Source: Nitzschia sp. pyKryTriq1 (Eukaryota > Bacillariophyta > Bacillariophyceae > Bacillariales > Bacillariaceae). From it: 64,000 nucleotides of DNA. The notes below the pieces were generated by a model. It saw only the letters and a program-made list of their open reading frames with translations, was not told the origin of the DNA and did no database searches. The stretch covers positions 2,604,001-2,668,000 of the forward strand of contig OY101115.1 of the NCBI GenBank assembly GCA_956465555.1, written 5' to 3'. The position numbers and the translations under genes were made by a program. Below are positions 43,521-61,768 of the stretch, in pieces. Numbering within the stretch: position 1 is the first letter of the stretch; each line of letters starts with the position of its first letter.

Positions 43521-44264
43521 GGCTATAGAGAGAGGGGGTGCAAAGGAGAGATATCACCCAATAATTGTTTGGATTGATGATGATGGATGTGCCGGAGAAA
43601 TGGAAGATAGTTGTTATCATCGTTCATTTTTCTTGGCTTATTTCTTCGTCGTCTCAAGTTGGGTGGTGGCTAGTGGGTGGAAGCGATCAGTCGATCTTGT
43701 CGAAACGGAATCTGGAATTTGGAATGTTGAAACATTTTGTATCTTCTCGATCTCACCACTGATTTTCGGCCAATGTGCTCGTTGACTCCCGTGACCGGAA
43801 ATTTCGACGGTAGGACTTTCGTTGACCCCTGAGTTGTTATTCAACTCACAAGTAATCTGTACATGAAAAAAAGGGCTGCGCGGATCGATGAAAAAAATGA
43901 TATCCATGCTTCAAATTAGAGAGAACATTCCTGGGGGGCCTTGTCAGTCTGGAGCTGAGTGGGGCAATAGTTTTTTGACCTTCGCTCGACACTGTACTAC
44001 CAGGTACCAGCGCAGCATAGTACCAGTACGGTACTGTACCATACTCGCGTACAAGGCGTACGGCGTACGGTATGCGGTATGAGTAATGTACTTGATACTC
44101 GCGACTCGCGACACATCACACATCACAAGCAACAGAGATGATTCTGCACATCACACCCAACACCCAGTACTAATCTCCAACAACCAAAGGGTTGTTACCA
44201 GGTATTAAGAGGATTTATTAGTAGACGGTCGACCGCTTAGTTCCGGAGGAAACAATCATCAAGT
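43521..44264. promoter_or_regulatory. Divergent promoter region, RRP7 / double-PH gene
   Basis: About 740 bp. GTAC- and TAC-rich palindromic patch at 43995-44095, including CGTACGGCGTACGG. No gene seen. Confidence 0.45.
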
Positions 44265-47229
44265 ATGGCGGCTCCCAAAGGCTTTCCGTTAAGCCTTCCA
44301 ATAACTGATGATGATGACGTTGATGATGTCAAGCCAGAGTCCCAGGGTATCGAAGAAGTCGACGCTGCCGCTGAACAAGGAGCAGGACCTTCGGCCGATT
44401 TAGGTGATAGAGGCTCAGCAACGGTACCCTTGCATATTATCCGGAAGGATCGGGATTCCCCAGAACGAGGTAGGCCGAGGGACCGTCATGATCCACCTAC
44501 TCGAAACGACTCTATCGAAGACAATATTGTGGGTCAGCCACCATTTGGCGATAACGAAGTGGATTTCGAGATTTTACCAGACGACGACGACGCAGGTGAC
44601 GAGGGTGTTGCGAGTGAACAAGTACAGCAGGATACAACCAAGCCCAGACTTATACGGAGAAGTAGTGCTCCTTCTCCCAAAACCGTCCCAATAGTTAGTC
44701 CGCCTAGATCCCCGACCAACACTCCTCCCGACTCCCCACCGCCCTCACCGGCGACACCTTCGCGCAACCTTTTAAGTCGAATAGCTGCTCCCTTGACACC
44801 AAGGGGTCGTGTATCGTGGAAGCAAGGTCAAGAAGAGGAGGATGTCAAAGCCAAAGCTGAAGAGGAACAAGATGGGAAAGGCGCGAAGGCTCATCGTCGA
44901 AGTCAGACTACCACTACGGACGGCTTTGCACTGAGATCCCCCGGACCTTTCCGAGCGATGCTTCGTGCCCGTGGAATGACTCCCTTCAAGGGCAATGGTA
45001 GTATTAAAGATCTCTCGATTGAACCGAGTATGGGCACTGATGACTGGGGGCAAGAGGATGGATCGTCATCGGAGGAAGAATATTCCGAGGACGAAGACGA
45101 AATCTCGATAGATGATGAATCAAGCATATTTGATGACGTGGCTGACGATGCTGAGCTCGTGAGTGATTTTTCTTCCATACCGCCCATGCCAAACAGCTTT
45201 TTAGACCTTCCGCCAGATCTTTATGACTATCTTGACCCGGAATTGGTGAAAAACATTGCCTCCCAAAAGATTGCTACCATTGCGTATGAGCATCATTTGC
45301 TAGTCAAGGGAGTCTTGCAGCTCTTGGCAGAGCGGGATGTTGTGGGAGTCGAAGGTGACATCCACGATACTTCGAACGTTGTGAAAATGGGGCCACTCAA
45401 GAAGAAGTCTACTCATGGACTTTGGTCCGTCAAATACGTGGAAATCCGCAGAGGCAATTTATCCTACTTTTCAGACGATGCCAGTCAATTTGGTAGTGCT
45501 CCTCGGAAAACTATCCACCTTCGGAAACGAACATGTCGGTGTGAGCCTGTCGTTGAGACGAATGCCAATGCGGATAGTTTTGTGTTTCAGTTGTTAGTAG
45601 AGGGCGGTCCCAAGAAACTTTGGATGGCAAAATCAGATGAGGAACGGCAAGGATGGATTCGAGCTATAAATCAATCGATGATTGGTCAGACGGAAGGATC
45701 CCAGGACGCTCCTGTTGATCTTTCCATGTATCAATCTGCTATTGCAGCCTATCGATCGGTTCAAGGATCGCTGAAGGAAGTAGAATCGCGTGAAGATTAT
45801 CTCGTGGCGGTCGATGGTTTGCTGTATCGAAAAAGCTCCTCTTCGGCACTGCGTGTACCGATGACTTGGGTTCGCGAGGAAGTGATACAACGTGACGATA
45901 GTCCGAAGGATGCGCATACTGCAAATGCACTTGTCAAAACTTCAATCTCTGAAAATTGGAAGTGCTTGTCTAGCACATCTGTTGATATCAACGGCTGTCT
46001 GATCTCGGCTGACACCGCCTATTCGGCAGAACGAGTCATTGGTACGTTATCTCGATGTATCCTTGAATTCGATAGGGTCGATGATTGCGAACTGGAGTCA
46101 GGAATCTCGACCAAAAAAATCAAACATTCCAATAAGGACTCTTCCATGACGGAGGTCGAAGCTGTTTCGTATGCCCGTACTATCTTGTTCGGTGCCCTGA
46201 GAAGCCAGATTCGAGGTGATGTCCTGGCAGCTGTGCAAAATTTAGTTCAGAATGAAAGCATCGCCCATGTAGAGCTCGATAAATCAGAACCGCTACAAAT
46301 TGATGTATCCTTTGCCGGCGATGACTTCGCAGAACGAGAAAAACACCCATATGATGTGAGTGGTTGGCTTCTCACCCGACCAAAGAAGGGCAAAGCAGCA
46401 TGGAAGCATCGATTTTTCGTTGTCTCGGAGGGTATATTGAGCTTTTTTGCAAAAGCGGAGCCACGCCCTTACGATTTGCGAGGTCAACTAGTCCTTAGCA
46501 AATGTACGATTGAGTCGCTTGATGACAATGTTCTTCAGATCGAAGGGGAGGAAGATGGAAGATGCCTACAATTTGAAGACCGGGGAGTCTTGTTGAAGTG
46601 GCGAACGGTTTTGGAGCGCGCCGCTGATCCCGAATTCCCAGTAGTAATATCGGACCCACCGTCGGCCGAGCATCGTCGGCGGGGAATGCGCGGAACTATT
46701 ATTGTCCAGCCCGTCAAGACGGCAACGCGAGGTGCAATGAAGGCAATGAAAGGTGCGAAAAATGCAGGTATGAAACAGATCAAGAACGCTAGAGGCATGA
46801 TTGCTAGAGGTATTGCCGGTCGGCAGCGGGGAGAAAGACGCGCCTCCGCTCACGACATGCTAATTATGAGTACAAGGGGTCTGACGGAAGCCGTCGGGAC
46901 TCAAAAGAGAGAACCGACTGTTCAGGCTGTAACTGAGTTCAATCATGTGTTCAAAGTGATGCCAATCCTATCCAGTGATAACCCGGAACCGCTACTGTAA
47001 GTGAATCAATCGATCCAAGGCTCGTCGCCTTGAGGATTGGTTCTGTCGTACTCACGTCGTCTTTTTCTTCTTCTTCAGTATCATCCGCGTTAGATTGTAC
47101 CAGGCCTTCTTGTTGTCAGGTGGGGTCAATGGTCGCCTTTCTCGTGGAGACGAGCTGATCGAAATGGAATTTCTTGGGCTGGAGGACGATGGTGACCATG
47201 AATTTTTGGAAGCCCCGACGTCCCTGTAG
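44265..47229 (+). CDS. Protein with two PH domains and a basic amphipathic tail
   Basis: Exons 44265-46996 and 47079-47229 (82-bp intron); 960 aa. The first ~310 residues are acidic and Ser/Pro-rich. PH domain 1 is at about residues 371-475 (GPLKKKSTHGLWSVKYVEIR ... LWMAKSDEERQGWIRAIN, with the invariant Trp in the final helix). A helical middle region of unknown type follows. PH domain 2 is at about residues 696-795 (GWLLTRPKKGKAAWKHRFFVV ... LLKWRTVLERA). A basic, glycine/methionine-rich helix follows (TRGAMKAMKGAKNAGMKQIK), which could bind membranes. The short last exon restores a hydrophobic end. Likely a phosphoinositide-responsive peripheral membrane protein. Its stop is 13 bp from that of response regulator 1. 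Confidence 0.82.
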
Positions 47230-47242
47230 GCGGTTCTCTTTC

Positions 47243-48325
47243 TCACAATTGGACGTTACCCGTTTTCACTGCCCAACGGACCAACTCAGTTCGATTTTTA
47301 ACCCCTGTTTTGCGGAACATCCTTGTCAATAGCTGTTCCACACGCCGTGTAGATAAAAATGTCTTGGCTGCTATTTCTTTTGTCATGAGCCCTTCGCACA
47401 AGAGTGCCAAGATTTGTCGTTCATCTGGAGCCAAAAAGACATTTGTCTGTTCCACCCATCCATTGCCAATACCGCCGCCGCCCTTTTCAAGTAGCAAATA
47501 CTTGATCTCATCCAGATCGCGTTTCAAATCATCCACCTGCACATTTGCTCCATTAAGGTTCTCATGTCGTTCAATGACCCCATCAACTATGGCTACAAGC
47601 TCATCTGGATCAAAGGGTTTCGGTAGATAGGCATCGGCACCTGCATTGTATCCTGCAATTCGATCTTGGGTCATACCTTTTGCCGTAAGCAGCACCACCG
47701 GAACTTCCATCATTGTCTCATCGTCTCGAATGCGTTGCAGGAGTTCCAAGCCGTCCATTTCTGGCATGCGAATATCACTCACAATGCAGTCTGGTAATGT
47801 CTTTTTGCCCAGTACTATGTTGTTGTTGCCTCCTTCACCACCACCTCGACCACCCGAGAGACTATCTTCGGTGCGTCTTGTCTTGCTACTCGCCACTTGG
47901 AGTGCCGTGGGTCCATCGGCGCATGCTGTTACTTGATACCCTCGATCAAATAACAGCTGCCCGACGGCCTTGCGAATGGCTTCTTCGTCGTCGACCACGA
48001 TGACCCAACATTCAGATCGTTTTCGCCACATGGGATCCTCTCTCGAGGTATATTGAAACACATCAATGTTTGGATTGTCGTTTTCGTCATCATCACCGCC
48101 CAAGTCGTCGTCATCGTCATTGTCATCTTCCAGACCCATCCACAAGGTCGTTGTGCTTGGTGTGCGTATTAATCCACAACAATTGATATTCAGTGCCGCC
48201 GTCTTTTCGTCGACATGATTGGTATTTATGCTACCCGAGAACAACGAAAATCCATGTACTGCCACTGACAAGGCTTCGAGGCACACAAGAAGCAGGACTC
48301 TTTTCCGGCAGTGCCATATTGTCAT
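47243..48325 (-). CDS. Ycf29-like response regulator 1 (REC + LuxR HTH), plastid-targeted
   Basis: Two-component response regulator and DNA-binding transcription factor of the NarL/LuxR class. Single exon, 360 aa. The N-terminus MTIWHCRKRVLLLVCLEALSV followed by AVHGFSLF is a signal peptide with an ASAF-like Phe, pointing to the plastid. The REC domain keeps the acid pair D112/D113, phospho-acceptor D184 (IVSDIRMP), T214 (VLLTAKG) and K236 (LPKPFDPDE); a Gly-rich insert lies at ~150-170. A short linker helix (VDDLKRDLDEIKYLLLEKG) leads to the HTH at ~298-355 (LLCEGLMTKEIAAKT, GVKNRTELVRWAV). LTAKGM.DRI.GY.AGADAYLPKPFDPDEL and the linker are characteristic of Ycf29 of red-algal plastids and cyanobacteria. 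Probably a plastid gene moved to the nucleus. A paralogue is at 58458-59526. Confidence 0.88.
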   Translation of the reverse strand: MTIWHCRKRVLLLVCLEALSVAVHGFSLFSGSINTNHVDEKTAALNINCCGLIRTPSTTTLWMGLEDDNDDDDDLGGDDDENDNPNIDVFQYTSREDPMWRKRSECWVIVVDDEEAIRKAVGQLLFDRGYQVTACADGPTALQVASSKTRRTEDSLSGGRGGGEGGNNNIVLGKKTLPDCIVSDIRMPEMDGLELLQRIRDDETMMEVPVVLLTAKGMTQDRIAGYNAGADAYLPKPFDPDELVAIVDGVIERHENLNGANVQVDDLKRDLDEIKYLLLEKGGGGIGNGWVEQTNVFLAPDERQILALLCEGLMTKEIAAKTFLSTRRVEQLLTRMFRKTGVKNRTELVRWAVKTGNVQL

Positions 48326-49019
48326 GATGATAATGATAGTGATGGTAATTGTGATGAGGTTGCTTATTTAATATTATTGTCTCTTCATTGGCATGACTTA
48401 TGTCTTATGTCGTCCACATCAAGCAAGAGGAGACCAAACACCAAACAAAAAAGTTTGTGGATGAGAACAGAAATTCTTCATCATTCGAGGCCGAAACAAG
48501 GCCGAAAGACGAAGAAAAATAAAATGCTATCTACCCGACTGACTGGATCGGTCGGTCGACCACGCGCATTGGCCACGTCATGGAGGCATATTCAAACGCC
48601 GAAGAGCAGTGACGGACAGACCATTCGGAAACGACATCTAATCTTTCCGACTTCAAGGATCTGAATCTGGATCATCAGCGCCAGCCTCGCTCCACACTAA
48701 TAAACTCCACACGCCAACAAGTTGTTGACACGAGCAAGATGGCAGAACGCATCGGAACATCTGTTCTTCCAAAACAAGATCAATCATTGTTATTCCGAGC
48801 GAAGAAGCAGAGAGACATTGTTTGCACATACCGTACATACATAGCACCGGTAGTATTTTTGTAAGGAGAAACGAAAGAACAGGTTGTAGCAGGGCGTGAA
48901 TGTTCTTGGCGATACATACTCCAGTTGGTCACGTCGTCGCTATTACAGAAAGTCAGTCAGTACGATAACGGCATCTGCTTGTTTTGTATTGCTATTTGGA
49001 AGAAAGCACGGATAGAAAA
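48326..49019. promoter_or_regulatory. Divergent promoter shared by response regulator 1 and ABC1 kinase
   Basis: About 690 bp between two divergent genes for plastid-directed proteins. No ORF of note and no dense GTAC island; one CACCGGTA lies at 48845. Shared regulation is inference from position. Confidence 0.45.
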
Positions 49020-52000
49020 ATGACGGAAATCGGTGCTAGCTCCAGGCAGAAACATCACTCGCGGAGGTCTCTCGTATTATTATTGTTCTTATGTTCCACC
49101 TTGTCGTGGGTTTCCAGCAACCGAGGTGCAGCAGCTTTTCCGACATTCTCCTCCTCTAGGACGGTACAATCTTCACAACTCTATGCCTCTGGGGTCAGCG
49201 TTAATAACAACGAACGGCAACCAGAATCTCGGACATGGAATGTACAACGCCGGAAACCCACAAATAACAACAACAGCAACAACAACAAGATGGGCCCGAT
49301 CCTCCCGGATACCTCGCCCATCCATATTTCCGAGAATGTGATGGGCGGCCCAGGACGGAAAAAGATGAAGCCACTTCCAGTGACGGGGTACGATGCCCAG
49401 GCCATCTTGGATTTTTATGATCGTCGGCCACTACAGGTGGGATGGAGGCTCAACGCGTTGGGAATTCCTTTGTTTGGGTGGTACTTGGGTTTGCTGATGG
49501 ATAAGGCAATGGGCATTGCAGACAAACCCAATGTTCAAAGGAAACGAGGGGAAGAACTTCGGCAACATTTAGTGAGATCTCAAAGCGTGGCGCTAGTCAA
49601 GGTGAGTTGATATACAGTATTTACAATGGGGAAAACTTGTGTTGAGGTCAGCCAGCTATGTACAGTATAGTCAGGAACCAACTCGAACCAAGCAACCAAC
49701 CAATGTACCATTCTAATTTTGTTGTTGTTAAAAGTCTGGTCAAGCTCTCAGTCTTCGGCCAGACCTGATTCGAAACAAGATCTGGGCCGAAGAGCTGGGC
49801 AAGCTGGTGGATGCGGTTGGCGCATTTTCGGATACAGAGGCGATGCAAATCATGAAGGCGGAATTCACTGATTTGCAACCACGGATGAAAGTCACCAAGA
49901 AGACCTGGGTAGAACCGTTCAAGCGAAGAAAAGCCGCCGCCGTGAGCAAGCTAGAGAAACTTGTCGCCAGTGATCCCATTTTGAGTTTGTTCGAATTTGA
50001 TAACGACAACAAGGCTGTAGCTTCGGCATCGATCGGGCAAGTGTACAAGGCTAAGATTCGAAGAGGTCCACAACTGGAGGCGGCGATTGGAAAGGAGAAT
50101 GCTGCCAAATGGGGAGGCAAAACTGTGGCCATCAAGGTGCAGCGACCCGATGTGGCGGCCTCGGCGTCGCTGGACATGTATTTGCTTCGAAGGACGGCCA
50201 TGTGGCTAAGCACAATGCGAGGCGGGAACTTACCTGCCATTGCTGATCAGTAAGTTGACGCGAAAGGAGACTTGACTCGAAAGTCCTGGTCACGAATTGA
50301 CTCAACTGTATTGTTGGTCTCGACTTGTTGCTGTTAGGTTCGGAATGCAGCTATTTGGAGAACTGGACTATGTGCGAGAAGCTAACAACTGTGAGAGATT
50401 CCGGGAGTTGTATGGAGGATGGAAGAATGTAATGGTGCCGGACGTCTGTACGCCACTGACCCGCAAGAAGGTATTAGTGATGCAATGGGTAGACGGTGTG
50501 AAGGGCCCATGGCCGGGTGATGATGGGATTAAGATGGTACGAATCGGTCTGAGATGTTCGGTGGACCAACTGGTGAGTAGTCTTGACCTCAGAGGGTTTT
50601 CCAAACCAAGGAGTTCTCTTTCGCACGCTCACTCGCACCGTGCTACTTTCGTTCCGTAGATGACAACGGGACTTTTCCACGCAGGTAAGCGCATCCTGAA
50701 AGAAAGGAAGAAGAAGTAAAAATGAACCAGACATTCCTCACACTTCTGTTTTGTAGACCCCCACAGAGGAAATCTTCTCAAGACTTCTGACGGGAAATTA
50801 GCGTTCATCGACTTCGGGATGATGGCCGACATTGACGAAGAGGACCGTTACGGGCTTTTCGGCCTGGTGATTGGACTCCAAAATAAGGATTTGCCACTTG
50901 TCACAGAGAATCTTCTAAAGGTACGCTATTCTACCGTCTGATGTGCCGAGTTTTGTTGGGCTGGTTCTCACTTTTTGCTTGCTTTCTACATTTGATAGCT
51001 GGGATTCCTAGAAGACACGGCCCAACTTGATCAGTTGATTCCTCGACTACGGGCAGCCTTGTTGAATTCTACAGGAGGGACGGGCAAGGCATCCGATGTC
51101 AACTTTGCTCGACTCCAGGCAGAACTGGACGAAATTAGTCGCGAAAATGTGCTCCGCTTCTCGACTCCTCCATTCTTTACAGTCATCATTCGGAGCCTGA
51201 CTATCCTGGAGGGCGTCGCCCTGTCGGTGGACCCAAAGTTTCGGTTGGTGCGGGGATCGTATCCATATGTCTTGCGTCAACTTTTGGCGCCCGAAGACAA
51301 TGTGCGCACCCCAGAGGCACTCAAAAAGTTATTGGTCCGTCTATTGACTGTCAATGGAGAAGGTGCGTCAAAGTCGAAGGGAACGGGAATTTACGATGGG
51401 AAACTTTACTGACTGACTCTATACGTTTGCTCTATTCCGCGCTACAGAAAAGGAGATCGACTGGGAACGACTCCGAGACTTGCTAAAATTGGCTCAAAAG
51501 GCGCGAATACAATATGTACCTTCACAAGCAGAAAAGGAAGATGATAAAGCCACCGTCTCCAGGCAAACAATTGAACTTTTCTTCAAATTCATGACCAGTC
51601 GCACGGGACTATTCTTGAAACGACCCCTGGTCCACGAACTGGCTGAAGCCATTGACGGTATGGCAAGTGTGGGAGAAGCCAGACTACTGCAAGCTACTAA
51701 CGGCTTTCTCCCTCCCTTGCCTGGCATGAACGGTCCGGTCAATGAGCGTGTTATGTCCGAAATGAGAATGATGCTCGATACTTTCCAAGATGCATTAGCA
51801 GTGGAAGGCAACGAGAAAGATACAGGTTTGGGGCGTGCTAGAATCGCGGCAATGCAAGAACTTATTAGTGAAGTAGGCGCGCTCCTTAGGGATGAGCGTC
51901 TCCGTGAAGACGCCGGACCACTCTTAGAGGAAGTCCGATCCGTAATCCAAATGGTGGCGGTGGAAGTGTTGGAGATTCGAGGATCAAGAGCCATGAGATC

Positions 52001-52031
52001 CATCCTTCGCTTATCACCGTTGCAACGATAA
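49020..52031 (+). CDS. ABC1/UbiB atypical kinase (ABC1K), plastid-type leader
   Basis: ABC1 kinases support prenylquinone metabolism and plastoglobule or thylakoid function. Seven exons join in frame: 49020-49601, 49735-50249, 50338-50572, 50660-50684, 50757-50920, 50999-51362 and 51448-52031 (822 aa). Exon 4 is only 25 nt. A signal peptide (SLVLLLFLCSTLSWVSS) runs into NRGAAAFPTF, an ASAFAP-like plastid motif. Hallmarks: the KxGQ motif (KSGQALSLRPDLI, split by intron 1), Ala-rich loop ASIGQVYKA, VAIKVQRP lysine, catalytic DPHRGNLL (~453) and IDFGMM (~472), with MQWVDG between. The C-terminal ~200 residues are helical. Which ABC1K subclass it belongs to cannot be told by eye. Confidence 0.93.
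50660..50684 (+). other. 25-nt microexon of the ABC1 kinase gene
   Basis: Flanked by TAG before and GTAAGC after. It encodes MTTGLFHA plus one base that completes the Asp codon of the catalytic DPHRGN in the next exon. Skipping it would remove conserved residues and shift the frame before the active site. Confidence 0.8.
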
Positions 52032-52071
52032 TATCATGATGTACACTAGGCTAGCAGCAGATTTTTACGAA

Positions 52072-52548
52072 TCACTTTGATTTCTTTTTCAGATTGGATG
52101 ACTTGCTCGCAGTGGAATTCTTCTTGAGGAGCTTCGCGATCTGTGCCATTCTCTTCTCTTCCTGGTGCTTCTTGTATCGTTTCTTGTTAAAGGTGGGAAT
52201 GAGCGCCTTTTTCAATTCTGTGCTACTACTTCGAGTGTTCCCCAGGGTCTTTTTGGCCGTAGATTTTTCCACATGTCGTTGTTTGATATGATTTTCTCGA
52301 ATACGAGTGGCTGTCAGGTTTTTCTTGCTGTCCTTAGACGCCATCTTACGATCCAACAGCAAGAGAGAATTCACTTGATGGCGGATGACTTGCTCCTTGT
52401 CCACAGGGATTTGGGCCGGTTTGTTTTTCTTTCGTTTTAGTTTGGCGCGGCGTGTCGTCTCTTCTCGGGCTTCGTCGCCATCCTTTGCGTGTTCGGTAGC
52501 CAATTCGCAGGTCTGCTGTAGCAATCGTCTGATTTGTCGGAGGGACAT
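52072..52548 (-). CDS. Small Lys/Arg-rich protein, unknown
   Basis: Single exon, 158 aa, very basic (KRKKNK, KKRYKKHQEEKR, NLKKKSK). A helical N-terminus (MSLRQIRRLLQQTCELATEH) and a middle segment (VNSLLLLDRKMASKDSKKN) look conserved rather than random. Composition and size fit a nucleolar ribosome-biogenesis factor, but I cannot name the family. Convergent with the ABC1 kinase gene, with only 40 bp between stops. Confidence 0.65.
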   Translation of the reverse strand: MSLRQIRRLLQQTCELATEHAKDGDEAREETTRRAKLKRKKNKPAQIPVDKEQVIRHQVNSLLLLDRKMASKDSKKNLTATRIRENHIKQRHVEKSTAKKTLGNTRSSSTELKKALIPTFNKKRYKKHQEEKRMAQIAKLLKKNSTASKSSNLKKKSK

Positions 52549-53029
52549 GGTGAAAGAGGATTTAGAAAAGTAATGAACCCTATGGTACTCGTAGACTACA
52601 GGTACTGTGTTGCTATCGTCGATCGAAAGAAGAAAAAAGCTATTGGCGTTATTTTTCGTGCTTTTTTGGATTTCGATGATTTTCGATGGTGGAGAAAAAT
52701 CGGACGGAAGGACAGACTAAAGATTGACCATTCGGATCCGTCTGATTGTCACCCGGTCTGTGGTCGCCCCACGAAATTGGACCAATTCGACCAAACCATT
52801 TCTCCAACATTCGGCGGGCATCATTTCGCATCATCTCGAAGCAAAGATAGATCACGACGCGATGTCTCGCGGCAATGGCGTTGCTGTGCTACATACTCGT
52901 ACAGCACTCACCACTACTCGACACCTCTCTGCTCTCTGCTCGAGTTGTTGAAGACAACAAAAATCATCCTCTTCATCGATTGCAGTACTGTAGTAGAGAT
53001 ATTTTTGTGTTTCTTTCTTAAGACCCAAG
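52549..53029. promoter_or_regulatory. Divergent promoter region upstream of proteasome beta5
   Basis: About 480 bp between divergent starts, no convincing gene, no GTAC island. Confidence 0.4.
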
Positions 53030-53972
53030 ATGGCTACTGCAATGATCGGTAATGATATCCTTGATATCGGGACCCGTAAGGCCCGAAGACAACGAGGCGA
53101 CCCCATGGCTCCATCCATGTTGTCCATGGGTGCTCCTGGTCAATTTGACTTGCCCAATGTTCCGAACGTACGTAATCCTCGATGATTGACGGCTTATGCG
53201 TACATATATTTCTGCCCATGCTTAATCTCACAATGACTTGCTATCCCCTATTTTCTTCCAGCCGGCAGCCTACTGTCGCAGCAACTTTGCCTCGGTGTGT
53301 GGTACCGGAGACGAAAGTCAAGCCGTCAAATTTTCCAAGGGAACCACGACGCTTGCCTTCAAGTTCAAAGAAGGTGTCATTGTAAGTGTCGATTCTCGTT
53401 CGACGATGGGTGCCTACATTGCCTCCGGAACTGTGAAGAAAATCATCGAGATCAACCCGTTTTTGCTTGGAACCATGGCCGGTGGAGCCGCCGATTGTTC
53501 CTTCTGGGAACGAAACTTGGGCATGGAATGCCGTCTGTACGAACTCCGCAACGGTCGTCGTATCTCGGTTGCTGGTGCGTCCAAGCTCTTGGCGAATGTC
53601 ATGAGCTCGTACCGTGGATATGGACTCTCGATGGGTACCATGATTGCTGGTTGGGACGAAAAGGGTCCTCAACTCTACTACGTGGATGATGATGGAACCC
53701 GTCTAAAGGGAAAGATGTTCTCGGTGGGAAGTGGTTCAACGTATGCCTATGGTATCTTGGATAACTATTACCGAGACGACATGACTTTAGAAGAGGCGAT
53801 TGACCTTGGAAAGAGAGCCATCTACCATGCGGCGCATCGTGATGCTGCTTCGGGAGGTATCAACAACCTCTACCACATGACCAAGGATGGATGGACCAAG
53901 ATCCACTCTATTGATGTCAACGATATGCATTATGAGTTTGCGGAAGAAAAGGCCAATGCCATGCGATCGTAG
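53030..53972 (+). CDS. PSMB5: 20S proteasome subunit beta5
   Basis: Chymotrypsin-like catalytic subunit of the 20S core. Exons 53030-53167 and 53262-53972 (94-bp intron); 282 aa. The propeptide ends KFSKG, and autocatalytic cleavage would expose Thr74 as the mature T1 (GTTTLAFKF). Counting from T1, the catalytic Asp17 (VDSRST) and Lys33 (TVKKII) are in place, and Met45 ([12 protein letters not shown]), which shapes the beta5 S1 pocket, is present. [13 protein letters not shown] and [15 protein letters not shown] are typical beta-subunit blocks. The length matches the family. The identification as constitutive beta5 is secure. Confidence 0.97.
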
Positions 53973-54337
53973 ACTGGACTAGTTGATTGACGACGACTCT
54001 TGTAAGAATTATCCACTTGATCGATAACATGTAACGTACTACTGATAAGTTTGATTGACAAAGGCACATTCACCGCACATGTCTGGCTTAGCACACTACG
54101 ACTCCCTTAATATAGATTGAAAGGAAGCTTCCCTGAAAATTGGGTGTCATAAATGGAAGTTGCTACACTTGGAATATCCTCGAAAGGTAGTCGTCTGGTA
54201 CGCCCCACAAGGAGACATTTATCTACGGCGAGATGAACGATTACAGTACTGGTACTGGTACCAGGTACCGTTGCTTAATGTACAGGGTTTTCTACTAGTA
54301 GTTGCACGCACTCAGGTGTGTATAGTATGGTCTCCAA
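53973..54337. other. Convergent intergenic region with GTAC patch
   Basis: About 365 bp between beta5 and RbfA stops. GTAC palindromes at 54245-54285 (GGTACTGGTACCAGGTACC). This island sits between two 3' ends, so it is not limited to promoters. Confidence 0.5.
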
Positions 54338-55069
54338 TTACTCGGAGTCGTCATCGAAAAAGTCGTCGTCTTCCTCCTCCCACTCGTCTTCGTCGAACTC
54401 TTCATCAAAGTCCATACCAGCCACAAAGCCTTGTGGTACCGTATTCTCGCCGAATTCCCCAATTCTTTCACGTTCATAGCCCGCAGCAACTTTCTCAATC
54501 AAATACATGACATCCACAGCCGCTCCAACATCCACTTGGATGAATGTCAAACTTGGTGATGACTTCATATGAGACATTTTCTGCGCCAAAGTGTGTCGAA
54601 TTGGCTTGGTGTTTTGTACCAGCCAGGAATACGCTCGACGCTTGTCCACTACTGGATTATCTTCGGAGGAAGAAGACTTTCGGACCGAAACTGTAACTCT
54701 TGCTTGTCTCAAATCAGGGGAAACGTCCACACTGACGATGCTAATTCGTCGTCGCAGCTCGTCGTCGATAAAATCCACATCCCCTTTGATGATACCTGTG
54801 TGGAGAATTTTCCCAAGTTCTGACTGCACTAGCTGTCCCACACGGTATTGTCTCTTTGAGCGGTCTTTTCCAGATCGAGATGCCGATCTTCCCGGAGTGT
54901 AGAGGGCTTGAAGAGCCGTGGTGGACGAGACGCCAATACAGGATGCGGATCGCATGGAATAATTATTCTGCTTTTCCATCATTCTGCTGGGCGAAAAGGC
55001 CGATACCGAATAGAAGAGGAACAAAACGGAAACAAGCCGCATCGAAAGGGCGACGTCTTGACGGAACAT
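54338..55069 (-). CDS. RBFA: Ribosome-binding factor A (RbfA), plastid-targeted
   Basis: Assists 16S rRNA 5' maturation and 30S assembly; here for plastid ribosomes. Single exon, 243 codons from 55069; the ATG at 55042 gives a cleaner signal peptide, MRLVSVLFLFYSVSAF then SPSR, a near-perfect ASAFAP-type plastid leader. The RbfA KH-like core spans about residues 65-200: YRVGQLVQSELGKILHTGII, then RRRISIVSVDVSPDLRQARVTVSV, IRHTLAQKMSHMKSSPSLTF and VDVGAAVDVMYLIEKV. The C-terminal ~35 residues are strongly acidic (DEWEEEDDDFFDDDSE). Plastid location is inferred from the leader. Confidence 0.92.
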   Translation of the reverse strand: MFRQDVALSMRLVSVLFLFYSVSAFSPSRMMEKQNNYSMRSASCIGVSSTTALQALYTPGRSASRSGKDRSKRQYRVGQLVQSELGKILHTGIIKGDVDFIDDELRRRISIVSVDVSPDLRQARVTVSVRKSSSSEDNPVVDKRRAYSWLVQNTKPIRHTLAQKMSHMKSSPSLTFIQVDVGAAVDVMYLIEKVAAGYERERIGEFGENTVPQGFVAGMDFDEEFDEDEWEEEDDDFFDDDSE

Positions 55070-55916
55070 TATCGAGATATCTAGGAGATGAAAAAAATGC
55101 TTTGCGGCCTCTTACTTCGTTCTCTTGTTGTGCTTTGTCGGGAAGGAATGTGTTTTGAACACAACATAAAGCGTGCAAGGAACAAGTAACACTGCCTACA
55201 ACTTTGAGCGAAGAAAAAAACGATGGTGGCTGTGATGGCTTTCGTGATGTGTGCGTTCTTTCTCTGAAAGGCCGGACAGACCGAAAATCAGCGACCAACT
55301 GGATTCGAATTCTACGTGGAGTTGCGAGAAGTTGAAAATGAGGTCATGATGGTCATCTCCTCTGATCATGTCGTGGACTCCTCTACTGTAGAGAGAGACT
55401 ACTCTAGAGAGTACCTCTCTACCGGTACTGCAGCTAGAGCTGAGTATCTTACTCCCTCGTGCAGTACATAGAGTTAGTGGGAATGAAGTTTTTGACCTAC
55501 TACAAGTAGACGACGAGTAAGTCAGCAGAGTGTCGTGTCCTCATAGAAGTACTTGTTCAGATACTTTCAGACACTATCGGTACTAGGCGGGCTATCCTTT
55601 GTAATCAACGACTAGTAACTTATGGGTATGCACTACGTACTACGTACTGTAAGTTCCTACTTAGAAGATATTTGAATGGCTAGAAAGGATATTACTAGAA
55701 TGCATTGGACAAGGTCGTGTAGAAACAATCACGAGCTTTCCTTTTATAATAGTTGTTGTACGCCGCATGGACCCTTCGTTCGTTCTGTAAAATATAAAAT
55801 CCGATATTGGTAGATAGTTACCAATCAGCCATTGCTTCTAAAACGAACATAGATGGTGAACATTCCCAAAAACCTGTCCTCGAATCTCGTCATCGTCGCT
55901 GCACACACCCCATAAT
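55070..55916. promoter_or_regulatory. Intergenic region with CTCTAGAG palindromes
   Basis: About 850 bp between the RbfA start and the Costars 2 stop. A cluster of overlapping CTCTAGAGAG/TACTAGTA palindromes lies at about 55378-55455, with weaker ones to 55640. No gene seen. Confidence 0.45.
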
Positions 55917-56309
55917 TTAAGCTTCGATGATTGTGATCTTTACATTGTCGTGAGGTCCTTTGAGAAGCATTTGTCCTTTGAATTCGATGAGTCCCCGCTT
56001 CTTGGCACTCTTGAGCGTTCCGACAAGAGCTTCATAGTAATTCGCCACTTGATCGTCGTCAAAGAGCTGGCCAAACAACACATGCGGCTCCCCCGGTTCT
56101 CCAATCCTGCGAATATCCACCAATAGCTGGGCGCACTCTTCTTCTAGACGGGTCTGCCAGAGGTTTCGAATCAAAATCAATCACGTAATAAATGAGATTA
56201 CAAACATGGTGATTATTCTTCACAAGGCATACCATGTAGCACTTACCGCTTGCTCCGAGACGACCGAGTCTGATGTTGACAGCGAGTGTTTGAGGTCGGG
56301 CTGGGTCAT
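55917..56309 (-). CDS. Costars/ABRACL-family protein 2
   Basis: Exons 56309-56247 and 56153-55917 (93-bp phase-0 intron); 99 aa, close to the usual ABRACL length. Exon 1 codes MTQPDLKHSLSTSDSVVSEQ-A; exon 2 holds the whole domain: CAQLLVDIRRIGE, VLFGQLFDDDQVANYYEALV, TLKSAKKRGLIEFKGQMLL and HDNVKITI. It is very similar to Costars 1 at 30572-31166; both have the intron immediately before the (S/T)RLE start of the domain, so they arose by duplication of an intron-bearing gene. This short form is the more canonical. Probable actin-linked cytosolic role, from the family. Confidence 0.9.
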
Positions 56310-57021
56310 TTTCAACAGAACGATTTTGTGTAAAAAAGGAAGGAAATCAACGCAGAAATTCAAGAGCAACGAACGATCAGGGGTGATCAATCAGGGTAAG
56401 AAGGGAGTGAAAAGAGAGAAGTATCAATCTGGGTCTCGAGAAAAAGAGTATGGAATGATAACGCCAGCTCTATCCAAATTATTATAATAAAAAGTCCAAA
56501 GCCGGTTTTTTTTTGTGTCGTCGGTCCTTGGCTTTGTTGTGTTGATTACAGTTGCGAGCGAAAAGCGACATGATGGATGACCGTTCGCGCCAATCGCGCG
56601 CCGCTCAACTCGTTCGTTCGCCGGTCCTACCGGTACTGTACGTACGTACCGGTACCAGGTACAGACCAGTACTGTATCAGGTACTGTGCCGGTACGGTAC
56701 CAGGTGCTGTACCGTACAGCGTGCCTGGTACGAGAGTACCAGTACTGTACTCTGTTCCGCACGAACAGTAGTGGGCCTTGCTCCTTGCTCTTGCTTTTGT
56801 TCAGGTCACTTTAGAAGCCATCGGCTGACGTACAGACTTATTTTGGGATAATATTGGGGGACTTTATTATGGGGAGCAGTCCATGTTTTTTGTACTGACT
56901 GTAAAGAAATGTACTGGTACAGTACAGTAGAGTACCAGGTACTTTCTGTGTGTTTACACTGCAGTAGGGGTTGTTGGCAGGGAACTCCCTTTTTGCAGTC
57001 CTCCCATCTGGCTTCCCTTGA
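56310..57021. promoter_or_regulatory. Intergenic region with strong GTAC islands
   Basis: About 700 bp. I count 16 GTAC tetramers between 56632 and 56750, and a smaller group at 56910-56942. GTTCGCGCC at 56583-56591 is a partial E2F-like site. No gene; the following DNA is a transposon fragment. Confidence 0.6.
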
Positions 57022-57603
57022 GTGTGTATCATCCTTCCTTTCCTGGTCACTTTGAAAGCAAGAAGTGGTTCGAATGTAGCACCGGGGGATCAGTTCACCA
57101 GTTGGATGTATTGGGCACAAAACTTTGTGGAGCGTCATCGTCTATCTGAGCAAAAGACGACGTATCTCGCGAAGAATCCCGAACATGCGACGATGGACTT
57201 GTTGAAGATCAAAAAAATGGTCCAAGACAAAGACAAGGAAGGTCTCGCGCAACTTACCTCCAAGATGCAGTCCTACACTGCGAATATCAATGGCTCCGAC
57301 GCGTATATGGCCCTGCACCGGAGGCAGTTGGAAGCCCTGATGGAGATCCACGGGCTTCCCACTCTCTGGTTTACTCTTTCGGCCACTGACAACCACTGGG
57401 CCGATCTTCATCAGCTTCTACGTATCCATTGGCAAGACAACTGGAACGAGCTTCAAAAAGCTATTGCACGGCGGAAGTTTGGACCACTGAGTATCCCAAT
57501 ACTCTCAAGTCCATGAATTCTACTTTCACACGTGGACTGGCCACTGAGACTCCATACGAGTCAGTCTTTGCCACAATGCGGTGTTCCCTGTCCCCTTTTG
57601 GAT
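57022..57603 (+). mobile_element. Helitron fragment (helitron helicase-like N domain)
   Basis: A 57022-57516 reading frame carries the Helitron_like_N pattern: FTSWMYWAQNFVERHR, KNPEHATMDLLKIKKMV, MQSYTANINGSDAYM, LEALMEIHGLPTLWFTLSA and DNHWADLHQLL. This domain lies upstream of the helicase in rolling-circle Helitron Rep/Hel proteins. Only ~155 codons remain; no HUH nuclease motif or helicase is present nearby. Near 57478 the likely continuation (TTEYPNTLKSMN) shifts to another frame, which runs to 57603, indicating a decayed copy. I see no intact Helitron ends. Plain DNA transposon remnant. Confidence 0.75.
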
Positions 57604-58013
57604 AAGTATTCACCGCCGTCGTCTACCTTGGGAGGCTTTGCTGGAATACAAGCAACATCTGCTGTTCGTCGTTGGGGTGTAGAGGAAGTAGAGAGTGTTG
57701 AGGCGGAAGAAGGACCCACCCCAGTGGAGACAGTCACTAGGGACACTGGAGGACTGCCAAAACGATTTCTGGAATTAGTAGAATGACTGCCAGAAGGACA
57801 GGGGCCATTAGTACTCCTAGTGATAGGGATCTCAGTCTTTCTGGCGGCATCACGAGCTCGCTTAACACGCTTCTGAAGAGTTGTGTCCTTTGATTCCTGT
57901 AGGGAAAAACCTTCCGCCAACATCGCTTTGGGGACCGACAAAACCCCAGCAGTCTTCAGCAGCAACCGAGCTGCTGCTGCAACTCTACCATCATCAGCCA
58001 CTATCTTTGGCAT
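57561..58013 (-). pseudogene. Fragment with Psq-type helix-turn-helix
   Basis: ORF of 150 codons from the ATG at 58013. The first ~60 residues (RVAAAARLLLKTAGVLSVPKA, then MLAEGFSLQESKDTTLQKRV and KRARDAA) resemble a Psq/CENP-B-like helix-turn-helix that recurs, as I recall, at the start of diatom transposase-like ORFs. The rest is Ser/Thr/Pro-rich and no DDE catalytic domain follows. It is antisense to and overlaps the tail of the Helitron fragment, so it is probably another mobile-element remnant or a truncated regulator. The frame is open upstream to 58121. Confidence 0.45.
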
Positions 58014-58457
58014 GATGGTAGACTTTTGCAATAGTGTTGTCGCGATATAATCGACGGCAACAAGTCCAAAAGCGGATCGGACAAAAGAATTTCGAGTTTC
58101 ATCGGCGTGGCGAGACTGCATCCACTGTGCATCGTTGGCCGTGGAGGAGGCATTTTCGGAGCGATGCCAATGATCAGCACACCGTTGGAAAGCTCTTGAA
58201 CTCCTCTTGCCAGTGGTACAAAAAGCGAGTAGAATAGACAGTCTCAGAAGGCGAAATCAGTAGAAAAGAATACCCTAAATAAAATCCGGATTTTATTGTC
58301 CGAAATGGGGTGCGTCACTACCCTACTTAAACCCATACCCATCATACCGGTACCGGTATTGTGTCTCGAGTCTCGAGGATGATGAATGAGTGTGCATGCG
58401 TATTGTGTCTCGATGACAGACTCATTTCCTGTGGAATATAACAACAAACTTGGGGAA
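58014..58457. promoter_or_regulatory. Region upstream of response regulator 2
   Basis: About 440 bp. One CCGGTACCGGTA element at 58350. A near direct repeat of TATTGTGTCTCGA is seen at about 58357 and 58401. No gene seen. Confidence 0.4.
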
Positions 58458-59526
58458 ATGAAAAAACAAGTGTTTCGTTGTATCCTTTGTTTCATAATAT
58501 GGAGACGATCGATTGCTTTTCTTACAATCCAAGTGGATCCAAAAATACTCCAGAATGGCAGAAGAACCCAGCGAATCATCATCCACGTCCCTGACCCAGT
58601 CGTCGGTGTATGGGCAAGGGCGAGACAAAGGACGGCAGCTACCAAACAGGACGTGGGTTCGGACTCGAAAGACGATGAAAAATCCCTGCAAGACCCAAAA
58701 TTTATCGAACGCAACAAGCGATGGATCATCGTAGTAGACGACGAAGAACCCATCCGAATGGCAGTCGGAGATTTTCTCTATGATCAAGGGTATCAAGTTA
58801 CGGCTTGTGCCGACGCAGATTCCATGTTGAAACTAGTTTCCTCATCCAACCAAGATCCAGACGATGGAGAACTCTCGACGCTACCAGATGTCATTGTTAG
58901 GTAAGCATCTGAGCTTGCTACAGTATTCGTACTACGCTTTCTCGACCAGTGAAGCGACAGCATTTCAATCTCATCCGTTCCTCTGTTGCTAAAACAACAG
59001 CGATATTCGAATGCCCGGAATAGATGGTATTGAGCTTCTAGGACTGATACGTGCCGATGAGAGACTTGCAAGAGTACCAGTGGTTTTGTTAACGGCCAAA
59101 GGTATGGCGCAAGATCGTGTACAGGGTTACAAAGCAGGGGCCGACGTGTATCTACCCAAACCGTTTGATCCAGATGAGTTGCTCAGTATTATCGACAATC
59201 TGATAACAAGACGACAGCAAATGAGTGGGAAGAGTGGCGAGCTAATGGATTTGAAAGAGGATATGGAAAAGATCAAGCAGATCATGAAACGCAACAGTGC
59301 GACCGTTGTAAAAAAGACAGATATATTCCTCACAGACACAGAGCGAGATGTCCTCGAGCTGCTTTGCAAAGGGTTTACAAACTCAGAAATTGCCGACGAG
59401 CGAAGTGTCAGTATTCTTGGGATCAACCGGGTCATTCAGAAGTTATATTCGAAAACAACAACGCGAAATCGAACCGAACTTGTTCGCTGGGCTATTACGA
59501 CAGGATACGTATCGCCGAGGATGTAA
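58458..59526 (+). CDS. Ycf29-like response regulator 2 (REC + LuxR HTH), plastid-targeted
   Basis: Exons 58458-58900 and 59001-59526 (100-bp intron inside the codon before the phospho-acceptor Asp); 322 aa. The start at 58458 gives a leader MKKQVFRCILCFIIW then RRSIAFLTI, a signal peptide with an ASAF-like SIAF, so plastid targeting is likely. REC domain: acid pair in IVVDDEEP (~93-94), phospho-acceptor D149 (VIVSDIRMP), T179 (VLLTAKG), K201 (LPKPFDPDE). Linker LMDLKEDMEKIKQIM and HTH at ~262-318 (LLCKGFTNSEIADE, TTRNRTELVRWAI). It lacks the Gly-rich insert of regulator 1 but is otherwise its close paralogue. The cognate histidine kinase is not in this window. Confidence 0.88.
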
Positions 59527-59674
59527 AGGGGGTGCACTAGTCTACTAGAGGGATCTACTTTGGTTCATGAACAAAAAAGTAGGACTCTTGCGTGTTTAGC
59601 ATTCTACAATAATATCCTTTTGATATGCTAATCCTAGTAGATTTACTTGCGTGCGAATACAGTAAATCTTACTT

Positions 59675-61126
59675 CTAACCAAATAGGCGAAAGTACACTT
59701 CGTGGGCGTACCACCTCCATCCATTCTTCTGCATCTCCTCCTCATCCTCGTCTACTTGTCCTTCCTTGCGGCCGGCCTCGAATTCTTCCAGAGTCCAACC
59801 CATTTCTTTCAATGCAAGTTCGTGTTGCTCGTCTTCAATATGGTGGATATCACGGTATTTGCACAATTCCTCCTTTCGCTTATTCAAGTATTGCGGGTGC
59901 GCCAGCATGTTGCTGAGAATGTTCTTGTAGCGGTGCAAGGTTTGTTCCCGACGCTTCCTTGTCCACACCTCTGGGTCTACGACCTCACCGGTCGATATCA
60001 AACCTCGCTGTGACTTGAGCTTGGATACAATATCCCAACTCATCACGGCCTTTATGGCACGTTGTATATTTTTGTCAACTTCCAACAAATGCATGAGTTC
60101 CGTCCTGTCCCATGTCAATACTGTTACATCGTTTCCGTTGGCCTTGACATCGCAGCAAGAATTCACATTTCCTCTCAACAATAGTCCAGCATGTAAACCT
60201 GTTTCGGAAATAAAATTTCCTTCATGGAGCTGGTACGTCACTAGCCCATCCCGTTCGACATTCAAGGTTCCCTGAAGCACCAATCGAACATAACGGTTGT
60301 CTTGATTTTGTTTCGTCACCAGTTCGCCCTTCATAAAGTGTTCAATTTTTCCCAGCCGGACCAATCGGGCAAAATCCGCCGCGTCCATGACGTAAAAATG
60401 ATGTTCGTGCATATGCGTCAACAAGGGCGATAGCTGGGACGCAAAGAATCGGTCGATATGCACCTTTAACACTCGATACGCATTGAGGGCGATAAAGAGT
60501 ACATTCCATTTGAATGGCAGCCACAAGACTCGACCATGCGGATGAAAATAAGCAAAGACGAGCATCGCCGAGCTTCCTGCAATCGCCAGAAGACGGAGCT
60601 GGACAAAGTCGTCCACGGCATACGAGATGGCCACCAGAATAAAACTGCCGTGGCCGAAACATTCCGAGAGAGAAATGGTGGCATGTTGGGGTGATACCCA
60701 ACGCGGAATCGGTACGGTTCTTGGCTTGTTCAAATATTGATTGGCCATATCCCGAAAGTGGGCAAACGTCAGCTGTTCCGAAGCGGCGGCACCTTCCCCT
60801 GCCGCCGTCGCCGCCTGGGAAGTTCCTCCTCCTCCACTGCTGCTGCTGCTGCTGTTGTTGCCTGCCAGTGTCGCCTTTTTGCGTTTGGTAGGGACGACGT
60901 TCCGCGATGCACGATTATTAGTATTTTTGCTTGATAAATATCGCCGCCGCGGGACATGGCATTCCCCTTGATGGTGGATGATATTTCTTCCTCCCTGCTG
61001 GAACATATTTCTCCCAGTCGATGACAGTAGTTGTAAAGCTGACCGTTGCACACCACCGCTGGTATGAAGAGAACGCTTCAATGCTGTTCTAGCCGCTGCT
61101 ACTGAGGATAGCATTGTTATTGGCAT
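59675..61126 (-). CDS. Popeye-domain-like membrane protein with mitochondrial-type leader
   Basis: Single exon, 483 aa. The first ~65 residues are basic, Ser/Thr-rich and lack acids (MLSSVAAARTALKRSLHTS ... RRRYLSS), like a mitochondrial presequence. After a low-complexity linker come three hydrophobic segments at about residues 160-230 (FILVAISYAVDDFVQLRLLAI, MLVFAYFHPHG, WNVLFIALNAYRV), then a cyclic-nucleotide-binding-like beta-roll at ~270-370 (GELVTKQNQDNRYVRLVLQG, YQLHEGNFISETGL). This matches the POPDC architecture. The DSPE cAMP-contact motif of animal POPDC is not obvious (FISETG is in its place). The C-terminus is helical and charged. Mitochondrial location is inference; animal POPDCs are plasma-membrane proteins. 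Confidence 0.78.
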   Translation of the reverse strand: MPITMLSSVAAARTALKRSLHTSGGVQRSALQLLSSTGRNMFQQGGRNIIHHQGECHVPRRRYLSSKNTNNRASRNVVPTKRKKATLAGNNSSSSSSGGGGTSQAATAAGEGAAASEQLTFAHFRDMANQYLNKPRTVPIPRWVSPQHATISLSECFGHGSFILVAISYAVDDFVQLRLLAIAGSSAMLVFAYFHPHGRVLWLPFKWNVLFIALNAYRVLKVHIDRFFASQLSPLLTHMHEHHFYVMDAADFARLVRLGKIEHFMKGELVTKQNQDNRYVRLVLQGTLNVERDGLVTYQLHEGNFISETGLHAGLLLRGNVNSCCDVKANGNDVTVLTWDRTELMHLLEVDKNIQRAIKAVMSWDIVSKLKSQRGLISTGEVVDPEVWTRKRREQTLHRYKNILSNMLAHPQYLNKRKEELCKYRDIHHIEDEQHELALKEMGWTLEEFEAGRKEGQVDEDEEEMQKNGWRWYAHEVYFRLFG

Positions 61127-61768
61127 TGTCTTACTATTGTATTGTCGTCGATGTTATCGTGAGCGAAACGGGCTTCTCACGTTCCACGAAAATGCAGATG
61201 ATTGATTGATCGATCGAAAGTGCAAGCTCGAGAAGGTTTGTGATGTCTCTGCTTTTGGCTCTTTGATTTTATTGACTCGCTCGGAATGCGAAGTTAAGAG
61301 GAATGTGGCGACAGCAATGACTAACTGGCGCTGCTCGTTTGTTGTGTGCTGGGTGTTTGGTTATCCAAAAGTCATCAGAATGGAAAGGACGCGGCAATGA
61401 AGAATACTGTAGATTGATGATGATGATGTGATGGGTCATGGTGGTGTGGCGATCCCGCAATGATGAGCTGTACTGGTACCGGTACGAATGTCGGAAGTCA
61501 AAACGTGACGTCGTGGGTCGCGGAGTTGGATGGCGCGGCGGGCGGAACTGGAACGAACGTGAGGCGCGAAATTCTTCTTCGCCATTTCACTTGGAACCGT
61601 CCGTATCAATGACGGACGTTAGTTCGATCCAATGAGTCATCCACGTCTCGTGGAGCGTGGAACGACAACCACTAAAACTTGAACTCAAACTTTTCTTCAC
61701 ACCACCATCACACACACCGAAACCTTTGGCATGAGCCAGGAGGCAGCACTGCTGGCACTGTAGACAAA
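61127..61768. promoter_or_regulatory. Divergent promoter region, Popeye-like / TRM11
   Basis: About 640 bp. GGCGCGAAA at 61563-61571 (E2F-like) lies about 200 bp before the TRM11 ATG; one GGTACCGGTAC element at 61476. No gene seen. Confidence 0.45.

What the first reader, a model, noticed from the sequence alone, without database searches (positions are those of the whole stretch)
47243..59526. Two nuclear, plastid-addressed Ycf29-like response regulators 10 kb apart
Both genes encode REC plus LuxR-type HTH with all phosphorelay residues intact, and both carry a signal peptide ending in an ASAF-like Phe (VHGF, SIAF). The GM.DR..GY.AGAD.YLPKPFDPDEL block and the LK.D...IK linker are those of Ycf29 of red-algal plastids and cyanobacteria. 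This suggests a plastid regulator moved to the nucleus, was duplicated, and then diverged: copy 1 gained a Gly-rich insert, copy 2 has an intron beside the phospho-Asp codon. A pair could form redundant, heteromeric or opposing plastid transcription switches, possibly lacking a plastid-encoded kinase.
Basis: partly seen in the sequence, partly recalled or inferred. Interest (0 to 1): 0.78.

Follow-up and report, generated by a model that had tools for sequence, protein, structure and literature searches.

The report
Two diverged algal plastid response regulators
An alga, probably a diatom, carries two old duplicate copies of a bacterial-style response switch that look sent to the chloroplast; they share their input and pairing surfaces but have entirely different DNA-reading helices, which suggests that they control different chloroplast genes.

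Summary
Both genes are real. g1 (47243-48325, minus) and g2 (58458-59526, plus, one 100-bp GT-AG intron) each encode a leader, a receiver with all five phosphorelay residues, a linker and a LuxR-type HTH. The core is 53% identical (122 of 230); synonymous sites are near saturation, so the duplication is old. They fit Ycf29/Rre1, already in print as nuclear in two diatoms, so relocation is not new. Support for that family is indirect (OmpR/RpaB/FixJ-type rather than NarL-type scores; PedR as best HTH model for both, 0 of 10 controls). No cyanobacterial or plastid Ycf29 sequence was reachable, so orthology is untested.

Most likely the copies take a similar signal, perhaps from the plastid kinase CSK, and read different plastid operators; heterodimers are possible. 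Against a shared kinase, 3 of 5 recalled kinase-facing positions differ. Plastid import is plausible, not shown.

The parts
47243..48325 (-). g1, REC-LuxR response regulator, single exon, 360 aa
48251..48325 (-). g1 putative signal peptide MTIWHCRKRVLLLVCLEALSVAVHG, followed by F (ASAF-like site)
   Evidence: sequence; heuristic
47567..48007 (-). g1 receiver domain (residues 107-253), phospho-Asp D184 at 47774-47776
47804..47863 (-). g1 Gly-rich insert, in a low-confidence loop between alpha2 and beta3
   Evidence: alignment; model
47252..47440 (-). g1 LuxR-type HTH (residues 296-358)
47312..47350 (-). g1 DNA-recognition helix TRRVEQLLTRMFR, 0 of 13 identical to g2
47258..47299 (-). g1 likely HTH dimer helix KNRTELVRWAVKTG, 11 of 14 identical to g2
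58458..58900 (+). g2 exon 1: leader and first half of receiver
58458..58517 (+). g2 putative signal peptide MKKQVFRCILCFIIWRRSIA, followed by F; in-frame ATGs further upstream (58413, 58386) leave the start open
   Evidence: sequence; heuristic
58901..59000 (+). g2 intron, 100 bp GT-AG, phase 2, splits the Ser codon before the phospho-Asp
   Evidence: predicted from sequence, no transcript seen
59001..59526 (+). g2 exon 2: phospho-Asp D149 onward, linker, LuxR HTH, stop
59413..59451 (+). g2 DNA-recognition helix ILGINRVIQKLYS
59464..59505 (+). g2 likely HTH dimer helix RNRTELVRWAITTG

Best explanation
g1 and g2 are two nuclear copies of the cyanobacterial/plastid response regulator Rre1/Ycf29, imported into the plastid of an alga with a secondary red plastid, most likely a diatom. 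A plastid histidine kinase, most plausibly the nuclear-encoded CSK (Hik2 homologue), phosphorylates D184 of g1 and/or D149 of g2; the receivers then dimerise and the LuxR HTHs bind plastid promoters. After an old duplication the receiver and the HTH dimer helix were kept, while the DNA-recognition helix diverged completely, so the copies bind different operators. Shown here: gene structures, domains, intact residues, old divergence with constraint, and the concentration of divergence in the recognition helix. Inferred: family membership, plastid import, CSK as kinase, different operators. Which helix is ancestral is not settled: GerE scores favour g1 (48.3 against 35.8 bits), PedR scores are even (47.8 and 49.1).
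For: REC+GerE in both. Alignment-based model of g1 residues 90-360 (43 rows, pLDDT 82): receiver, linker helix, HTH; nearest solved full-length chains FixJ and StyR. Best PDB sequence match of g1 and of the pair profile is cyanobacterial RpaA, receiver only. NCBIfam, full length: g1 best PhoB 91.3 and RpaB 91.0, NarL 70.9; g2 best FixJ 87.9, then OmpR, PhoB, RpaB 85.2, NarL 66.8; in 5 of 5 bacterial controls (of 40 held) NarL or MctR is best at 152-208 bits. HTH alone: PedR best for both, by 10.0 and 20.5 bits, but in 0 of 10 control HTHs, margins -1.2 to -22.6. dN 0.43, dS 2.29; 51 of 118 identical residues share a codon, 43.3 expected at saturation. Recognition helix 0/13, permutation P 0.0047; 0 of 780 bacterial pairs that low, minimum 3/13 among 286 pairs at 45-70% core identity. 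Next helix 11/14, reached by 29 of 741 pairs. Positions aligned with DosR 179/182/183 are R/E/Q in g1 and L/N/R in g2 (that these contact DNA is recalled). Print: nuclear ycf29 and CSK homologues in two diatoms whose plastids encode no two-component system (PMC2677595); Rre1 in diatoms with canonical CSK (PMC6949291); Hik2 transfers phosphate to Rre1 (PMC4751278).
Against: No Ycf29 or Rre1 sequence was compared directly. In absolute terms PedR scores the 10 control HTHs about as well or better (47.9-63.3 bits) than g1 and g2 (47.8, 49.1); only its rank and margin set them apart, and divergence from the other models could produce that. FixJ, a LuxR-type regulator, is the best full-length model for g2 and high for g1 (88.8 bits), above the 67-81 bits of the 5 controls. 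Both HTHs lack the Thr and His/Tyr present in 40 of 40 controls, so DNA binding is not certain. Alpha1 is 9 of 15 identical; at the kinase-facing positions (recalled mapping to Spo0F 14/15/18/21/22) 3 of 5 differ, and 2 of 4 at those named in the title of 4ja2 (alignment recalled). The linker is 9 of 37 identical. PMC1885438 (passages) says diatoms lack His/Asp genes; it does not mention ycf29. The leader evidence is weak.
Confidence: 0.62

Rival explanations
1. g2 is a repurposed or degenerating copy that no longer binds DNA and acts as a phosphate sink or dominant-negative partner of g1 through the shared dimer surfaces.
For: g2 differs from g1 at all 13 recognition-helix positions and lacks the family's Thr and His; lower GerE score; the dimer helix is conserved.
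Against: The frame is intact with a clean predicted intron, the receiver is complete, GerE is above cut-off, PedR is best with a larger margin than for g1, and buried-looking helix positions stay hydrophobic (V/I, L/V, L/I, M/L, F/Y). g1 lacks the Thr and His as well.
Confidence: 0.15
2. The copies are functionally equivalent or differ only in expression; the recognition-helix change is drift in a loosely constrained helix.
For: Old duplication near synonymous saturation; the linker and the insert also drift; alpha8 is only 4 of 13 identical, which 165 of 780 control pairs reach or undercut.
Against: The receiver (86 of 130) and dimer helix stay conserved, and 0 of 780 bacterial pairs lose all identity in the recognition helix. 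The pairs are not independent: they come from 40 sequences.
Confidence: 0.13
3. One or both copies are not plastid proteins, or came from another bacterial source than the plastid ancestor; for example a FixJ-type regulator.
For: Shuffled leaders carry the motif in 10.6% and 4.2% of cases and 1 of 12 other genes, a DnaJ protein, also matches; FixJ is the best full-length model for g2 and the best fold match.
Against: No record in plasmids (best 5000 counted), phages or viral contigs came near (below 60% identity); HTH margin for PedR; print places diatom Rre1 in the plastid pathway.
Confidence: 0.1

Closest known systems
Ycf29 (plastid NarL-like regulator of red algae and cryptophytes) and its reported nuclear homologues in diatoms (PMC2677595, PMC4810238; passages)
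   Same: Receiver plus LuxR/NarL-type HTH without an extended wing; Ycf29 and Ycf27 linked by BLAST in print, as the receivers here score with RpaB-class models; reported as nuclear in diatoms.
   Different: Here two diverged copies, a Gly-rich insert in one and an intron in the other. No printed account of such a pair was found in searches (open-access library only).
Rre1 of cyanobacteria (slr1783 / Synpcc7942_1860)
   Same: LuxR-type response regulator, partner of Hik2, the CSK homologue (PMC4751278, PMC13421787; passages).
   Different: One gene is named per strain in what I read, with a proposed motif GTNCGGK; here there are two recognition helices.
PedR (NF052366), photosynthetic electron transport-dependent regulator (that it is cyanobacterial is recalled)
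   Same: Best-scoring NCBIfam HTH model for both copies.
   Different: A 74-position HTH model without receiver; 48-49 bits is far below its cut-off of 120.
FixJ, NarL and DosR families
   Same: Overall fold and two-domain plan; FixJ is the nearest full-length solved fold, at about 14-15 A rmsd, so the domains are set differently.
   Different: FixJ and NarL model scores far below their cut-offs; HTH lacks the Thr and His/Tyr of all 40 bacterial controls.

Membership tests
Ycf29/Rre1 | Receiver with intact phosphorelay residues plus LuxR-type HTH | tested here: met
Ycf29/Rre1 | Receiver closer to the Ycf27/RpaB class than to NarL (Ycf29 and Ycf27 fall in one BLAST component, PMC4810238) | tested here: met
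   RpaB 91.0/85.2 against NarL 70.9/66.8 bits; NarL-class far ahead in the 5 controls. FixJ scores alike (88.8/87.9)
Ycf29/Rre1 | HTH of cyanobacterial type | tested here: inconclusive
   PedR is best model for both and for 0 of 10 controls, but its absolute scores are no higher than in the controls
Ycf29/Rre1 | Clade membership in a tree with cyanobacterial and red-algal sequences | not testable with these tools
   genome scan gave no cyanobacteria; no Rre1 or Ycf29 found in the collections searched
Ycf29/Rre1 | Plastid location | tested here: inconclusive
   leader heuristic
Ycf29/Rre1 | Partner of Hik2/CSK | not testable with these tools
   no histidine-kinase family in the 28 of 38 other window ORFs scanned; rest of genome not held
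NarL class proper | Full-length match to NarL-class models as strong as in bacterial members | tested here: not met
   NarL 70.9/66.8 bits against best NarL or MctR scores of 152-208 in 5 controls
FixJ | Score above the FixJ model's cut-off of 255 bits | tested here: not met
   88.8 and 87.9 bits
PedR | Score above the model's cut-off of 120 bits | tested here: not met
   47.8 and 49.1 bits

The most novel reading that the evidence does not exclude
The pair forms a combinatorial plastid switch: receiver and dimer surfaces were kept compatible while the recognition helices were fully exchanged, so that one redox kinase drives two homodimers and a heterodimer that reads composite operators. In effect the alga rebuilt, by duplicating Rre1/Ycf29, the two-output arrangement that cyanobacterial Hik2 has with Rre1 and RppA.
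Probability: 0.2. Interest if true: 0.72.

Novelty: new variant of a known kind. Interest (0 to 1): 0.48.

Why it matters
How diatom plastids tune transcription to photosynthetic electron flow is little mapped. The papers I saw name CSK and a nuclear Rre1/Ycf29 in diatoms, but no second copy and no diatom targets. Two copies with exchanged DNA-reading helices and shared pairing surfaces give a directly testable model of how one redox signal could drive more than one plastid gene set, and a natural case of specificity change after organelle-to-nucleus transfer.

Tried and rejected
Single-sequence AlphaFold2 model of g1: pLDDT 40, discarded; the alignment-based model was used.

Genome scan for relatives drew its patterns from the receiver's N-terminal part and returned 13 loci, none cyanobacterial by title; this used the only scan. 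Viral contigs: no Ycf29-like protein (4 of 8 scans). Plasmids and phages: no record counted reached 60% identity (23 and 29 stopped at 5000 records). YN00 failed, so dN/dS rests on NG86.

Helitron-mediated duplication: a Helitron_like_N fragment lies 0.9 kb before g2, but the duplication is near synonymous saturation and no other duplicated ORF or long repeat was found, so no link is claimed.

'Same kinase because the receivers are alike' was my first idea; the alpha1 comparison weakened it. 'g1 keeps the ancestral HTH' was dropped, since GerE and PedR scores disagree.

Papers that gave nothing on the pair: PMC5462543 (ochrophyte plastid proteome; none of six terms in its main text), PMC7596299 (no 'two-component', 'LuxR' or 'CSK' in its main text), PMC5859163.

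Unspliced intron as source of the Gly-rich insert: judged by eye as too short (about 60 bases, in frame), not tested.

Full report
Observation. g1 lies at 47243-48325 on the minus strand as one exon of 360 codons. g2 lies on the plus strand at 58458-58900 and 59001-59526, 322 codons, with a predicted 100-bp GT-AG intron that splits the Ser codon just before the phospho-Asp codon. Both carry Pfam Response_reg and GerE above the curated cut-offs and all five phosphorelay residues. g1 has a Gly-rich insert that g2 lacks. They are the only paralogous pair among 40 ORFs of 150 aa or more, and the only repeats of 30 bases or more found in 44000-62000.

Setting. Of 28 other ORFs scanned (of 38), several are typical nuclear genes: proteasome subunit, RRP7, DMAP1, CDC20/Fizzy. 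Between the two genes lie an ABC1-type kinase, preceded by an ORF with a GAAAF leader that I take as its first exon, and an RbfA protein with SVSA|FSPS. That the organism is a diatom is my inference from these leaders, the short intron and base composition; no eukaryotic collection was available to test it, and no whole genome is held.

Plastid address. A simple rule (hydrophobic 8-mer, small residues at -3 and -1, aromatic at +1) finds a site in g1 (VAVHG|F), g2 (RRSIA|F), RbfA and the ABC1-kinase leader (there at a W, not at GAAAF), and in 1 of 12 other genes, a DnaJ protein. Shuffled leaders match in 10.6% (g1) and 4.2% (g2). By eye the g2 hydrophobic stretch is short and followed by RR; on the other hand its next 20 residues are net +3, those of g1 net -1. 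The address is plausible for both and shown for neither.

What family. Three tests that need no Ycf29 sequence were made. (1) Full-length NCBIfam scores: g1 is best with PhoB (91.3) and RpaB (91.0), mostly through the receiver; g2 with FixJ (87.9, over its length), then OmpR, PhoB and RpaB (85.2); NarL gets 70.9 and 66.8 (best 25 of 95 shown). In 5 bacterial controls chosen from the 40, NarL is best in 3 and MctR in 2, at 152 to 208 bits, and FixJ gets 67 to 81. (2) HTH alone: PedR is the best of the NCBIfam models for both copies, by 10.0 and 20.5 bits; in 10 control HTHs it is best in none, with margins from -1.2 to -22.6. But PedR's absolute scores in the controls (47.9-63.3) are about as high or higher, so this is a rank signal, not an identification. 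(3) In a tree with 40 bacterial REC-HTH proteins g1 and g2 pair with 100/100 support across a branch of 3.63 changes per column (midpoint root, and the letter make-up of g1 and g2 differs from the rest); the best bacterial identity over the core is 34%. The best PDB sequence match is cyanobacterial RpaA, receiver only. PMC4810238 (passages) reports that Ycf29 and Ycf27 fall in one BLAST component, and that among 72 plastids of the red branch Ycf29 is encoded in cryptomonads and in red algae except Porphyridium. PMC2677595 (passages and outline) reports that plastids of P. tricornutum and T. pseudonana encode no two-component system and that CSK, ycf27 and ycf29 homologues are in their nuclear genomes. 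The most economical reading is that g1 and g2 are such nuclear Ycf29/Rre1 genes. The direct test, a tree with Ycf29 and Rre1, could not be run.

Age. NG86 gives dN 0.43 and dS 2.29; at 118 identical residues (Met and Trp left out) 51 codons are the same against 43.3 expected from codon usage. The duplication is old and the proteins have been under constraint. The closeness (10 kb, opposite strands) is therefore not a sign of a recent event.

Where they differ. Over 230 aligned core columns 122 are identical: receiver 86 of 130, linker 9 of 37, HTH 27 of 63. The longest run of mismatches is 13 columns, g1 326-338, and it falls on the DNA-recognition helix (permutation P 0.0047 over the core, 0.005 within the HTH). 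The alignment-based model of g1 (pLDDT 82) has a helix at g1 326-340 and the next at 345-355. As a yardstick I took 40 bacterial NarL-type proteins, 780 pairs: none has 0 of 13 identities in this helix; the lowest seen is 1, and among the 286 pairs with 45-70% core identity the minimum is 3 and the mean 6.3. The pairs share sequences, two of which are near-copies, and come from one actinobacterium and ten Chloroflexota genomes, so this is no probability. The next helix, the HTH dimer helix by analogy with NarL (recalled), is the opposite: 11 of 14 identical, reached by 29 of 741 control pairs; the two helices before are unremarkable or low (8 of 15; 4 of 13, reached or undercut by 165 of 780). 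In the alignment to DosR (3c3w) chain positions 179, 182 and 183 face R, E, Q in g1 and L, N, R in g2; that these contact DNA in DosR is recalled. Hydrophobic positions of the helix stay hydrophobic. The Thr and the His/Tyr found in 40 of 40 controls are missing in both copies.

Mechanism. Receiver kept, dimer helix kept, DNA-reading face exchanged: this fits two regulators with related input and different operators, able in principle to form heterodimers. In cyanobacteria Hik2, the CSK homologue, passes phosphate to Rre1 and RppA (PMC4751278, passages); Rre1 of PCC 7942 activates chaperone and sigma-factor genes, with a proposed motif GTNCGGK (PMC13421787, passages). PMC6949291 (passages) states that Rre1 occurs in diatoms with a canonical CSK. 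I therefore propose CSK as kinase for one or both copies. Against a simple shared-kinase view, alpha1 is 9 of 15 identical and 3 of 5 recalled specificity positions differ.

What is new. Not the relocation to the nucleus. In the searches made (over an open-access library only) I found no account of a second copy or of exchanged recognition helices. I rate this a new variant of a known kind.

Noticed in passing
57022-57513: Helitron helicase-like N-terminal domain fragment (PF14214, 2.8e-14), 0.9 kb upstream of g2; no other helitron domain in the ORFs scanned.
   Followed up: partly
48969-52031: ABC1-type atypical kinase (Pfam hit in the ORF 49732-50250), apparently in several exons, with an upstream ORF that carries a GAAAFPTFSS leader; divergent from g1.
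   Followed up: partly
54338-55069: RbfA ribosome-binding factor (minus strand) with a clear SVSA|FSPS plastid-type leader, so four genes with plastid-type leaders lie within about 12 kb.
   Followed up: partly
59678-61153: Protein with POPDC1-3 / weak cyclic-nucleotide-binding match on the minus strand, next to g2.
   Followed up: no
literature: PMC1885438 (passages) says trg1 (ycf27) is missing from nuclear and chloroplast genomes of two diatoms, whereas table 2 of PMC2677595 lists nuclear ycf27 in both; I did not see the conflict resolved.
   Followed up: no
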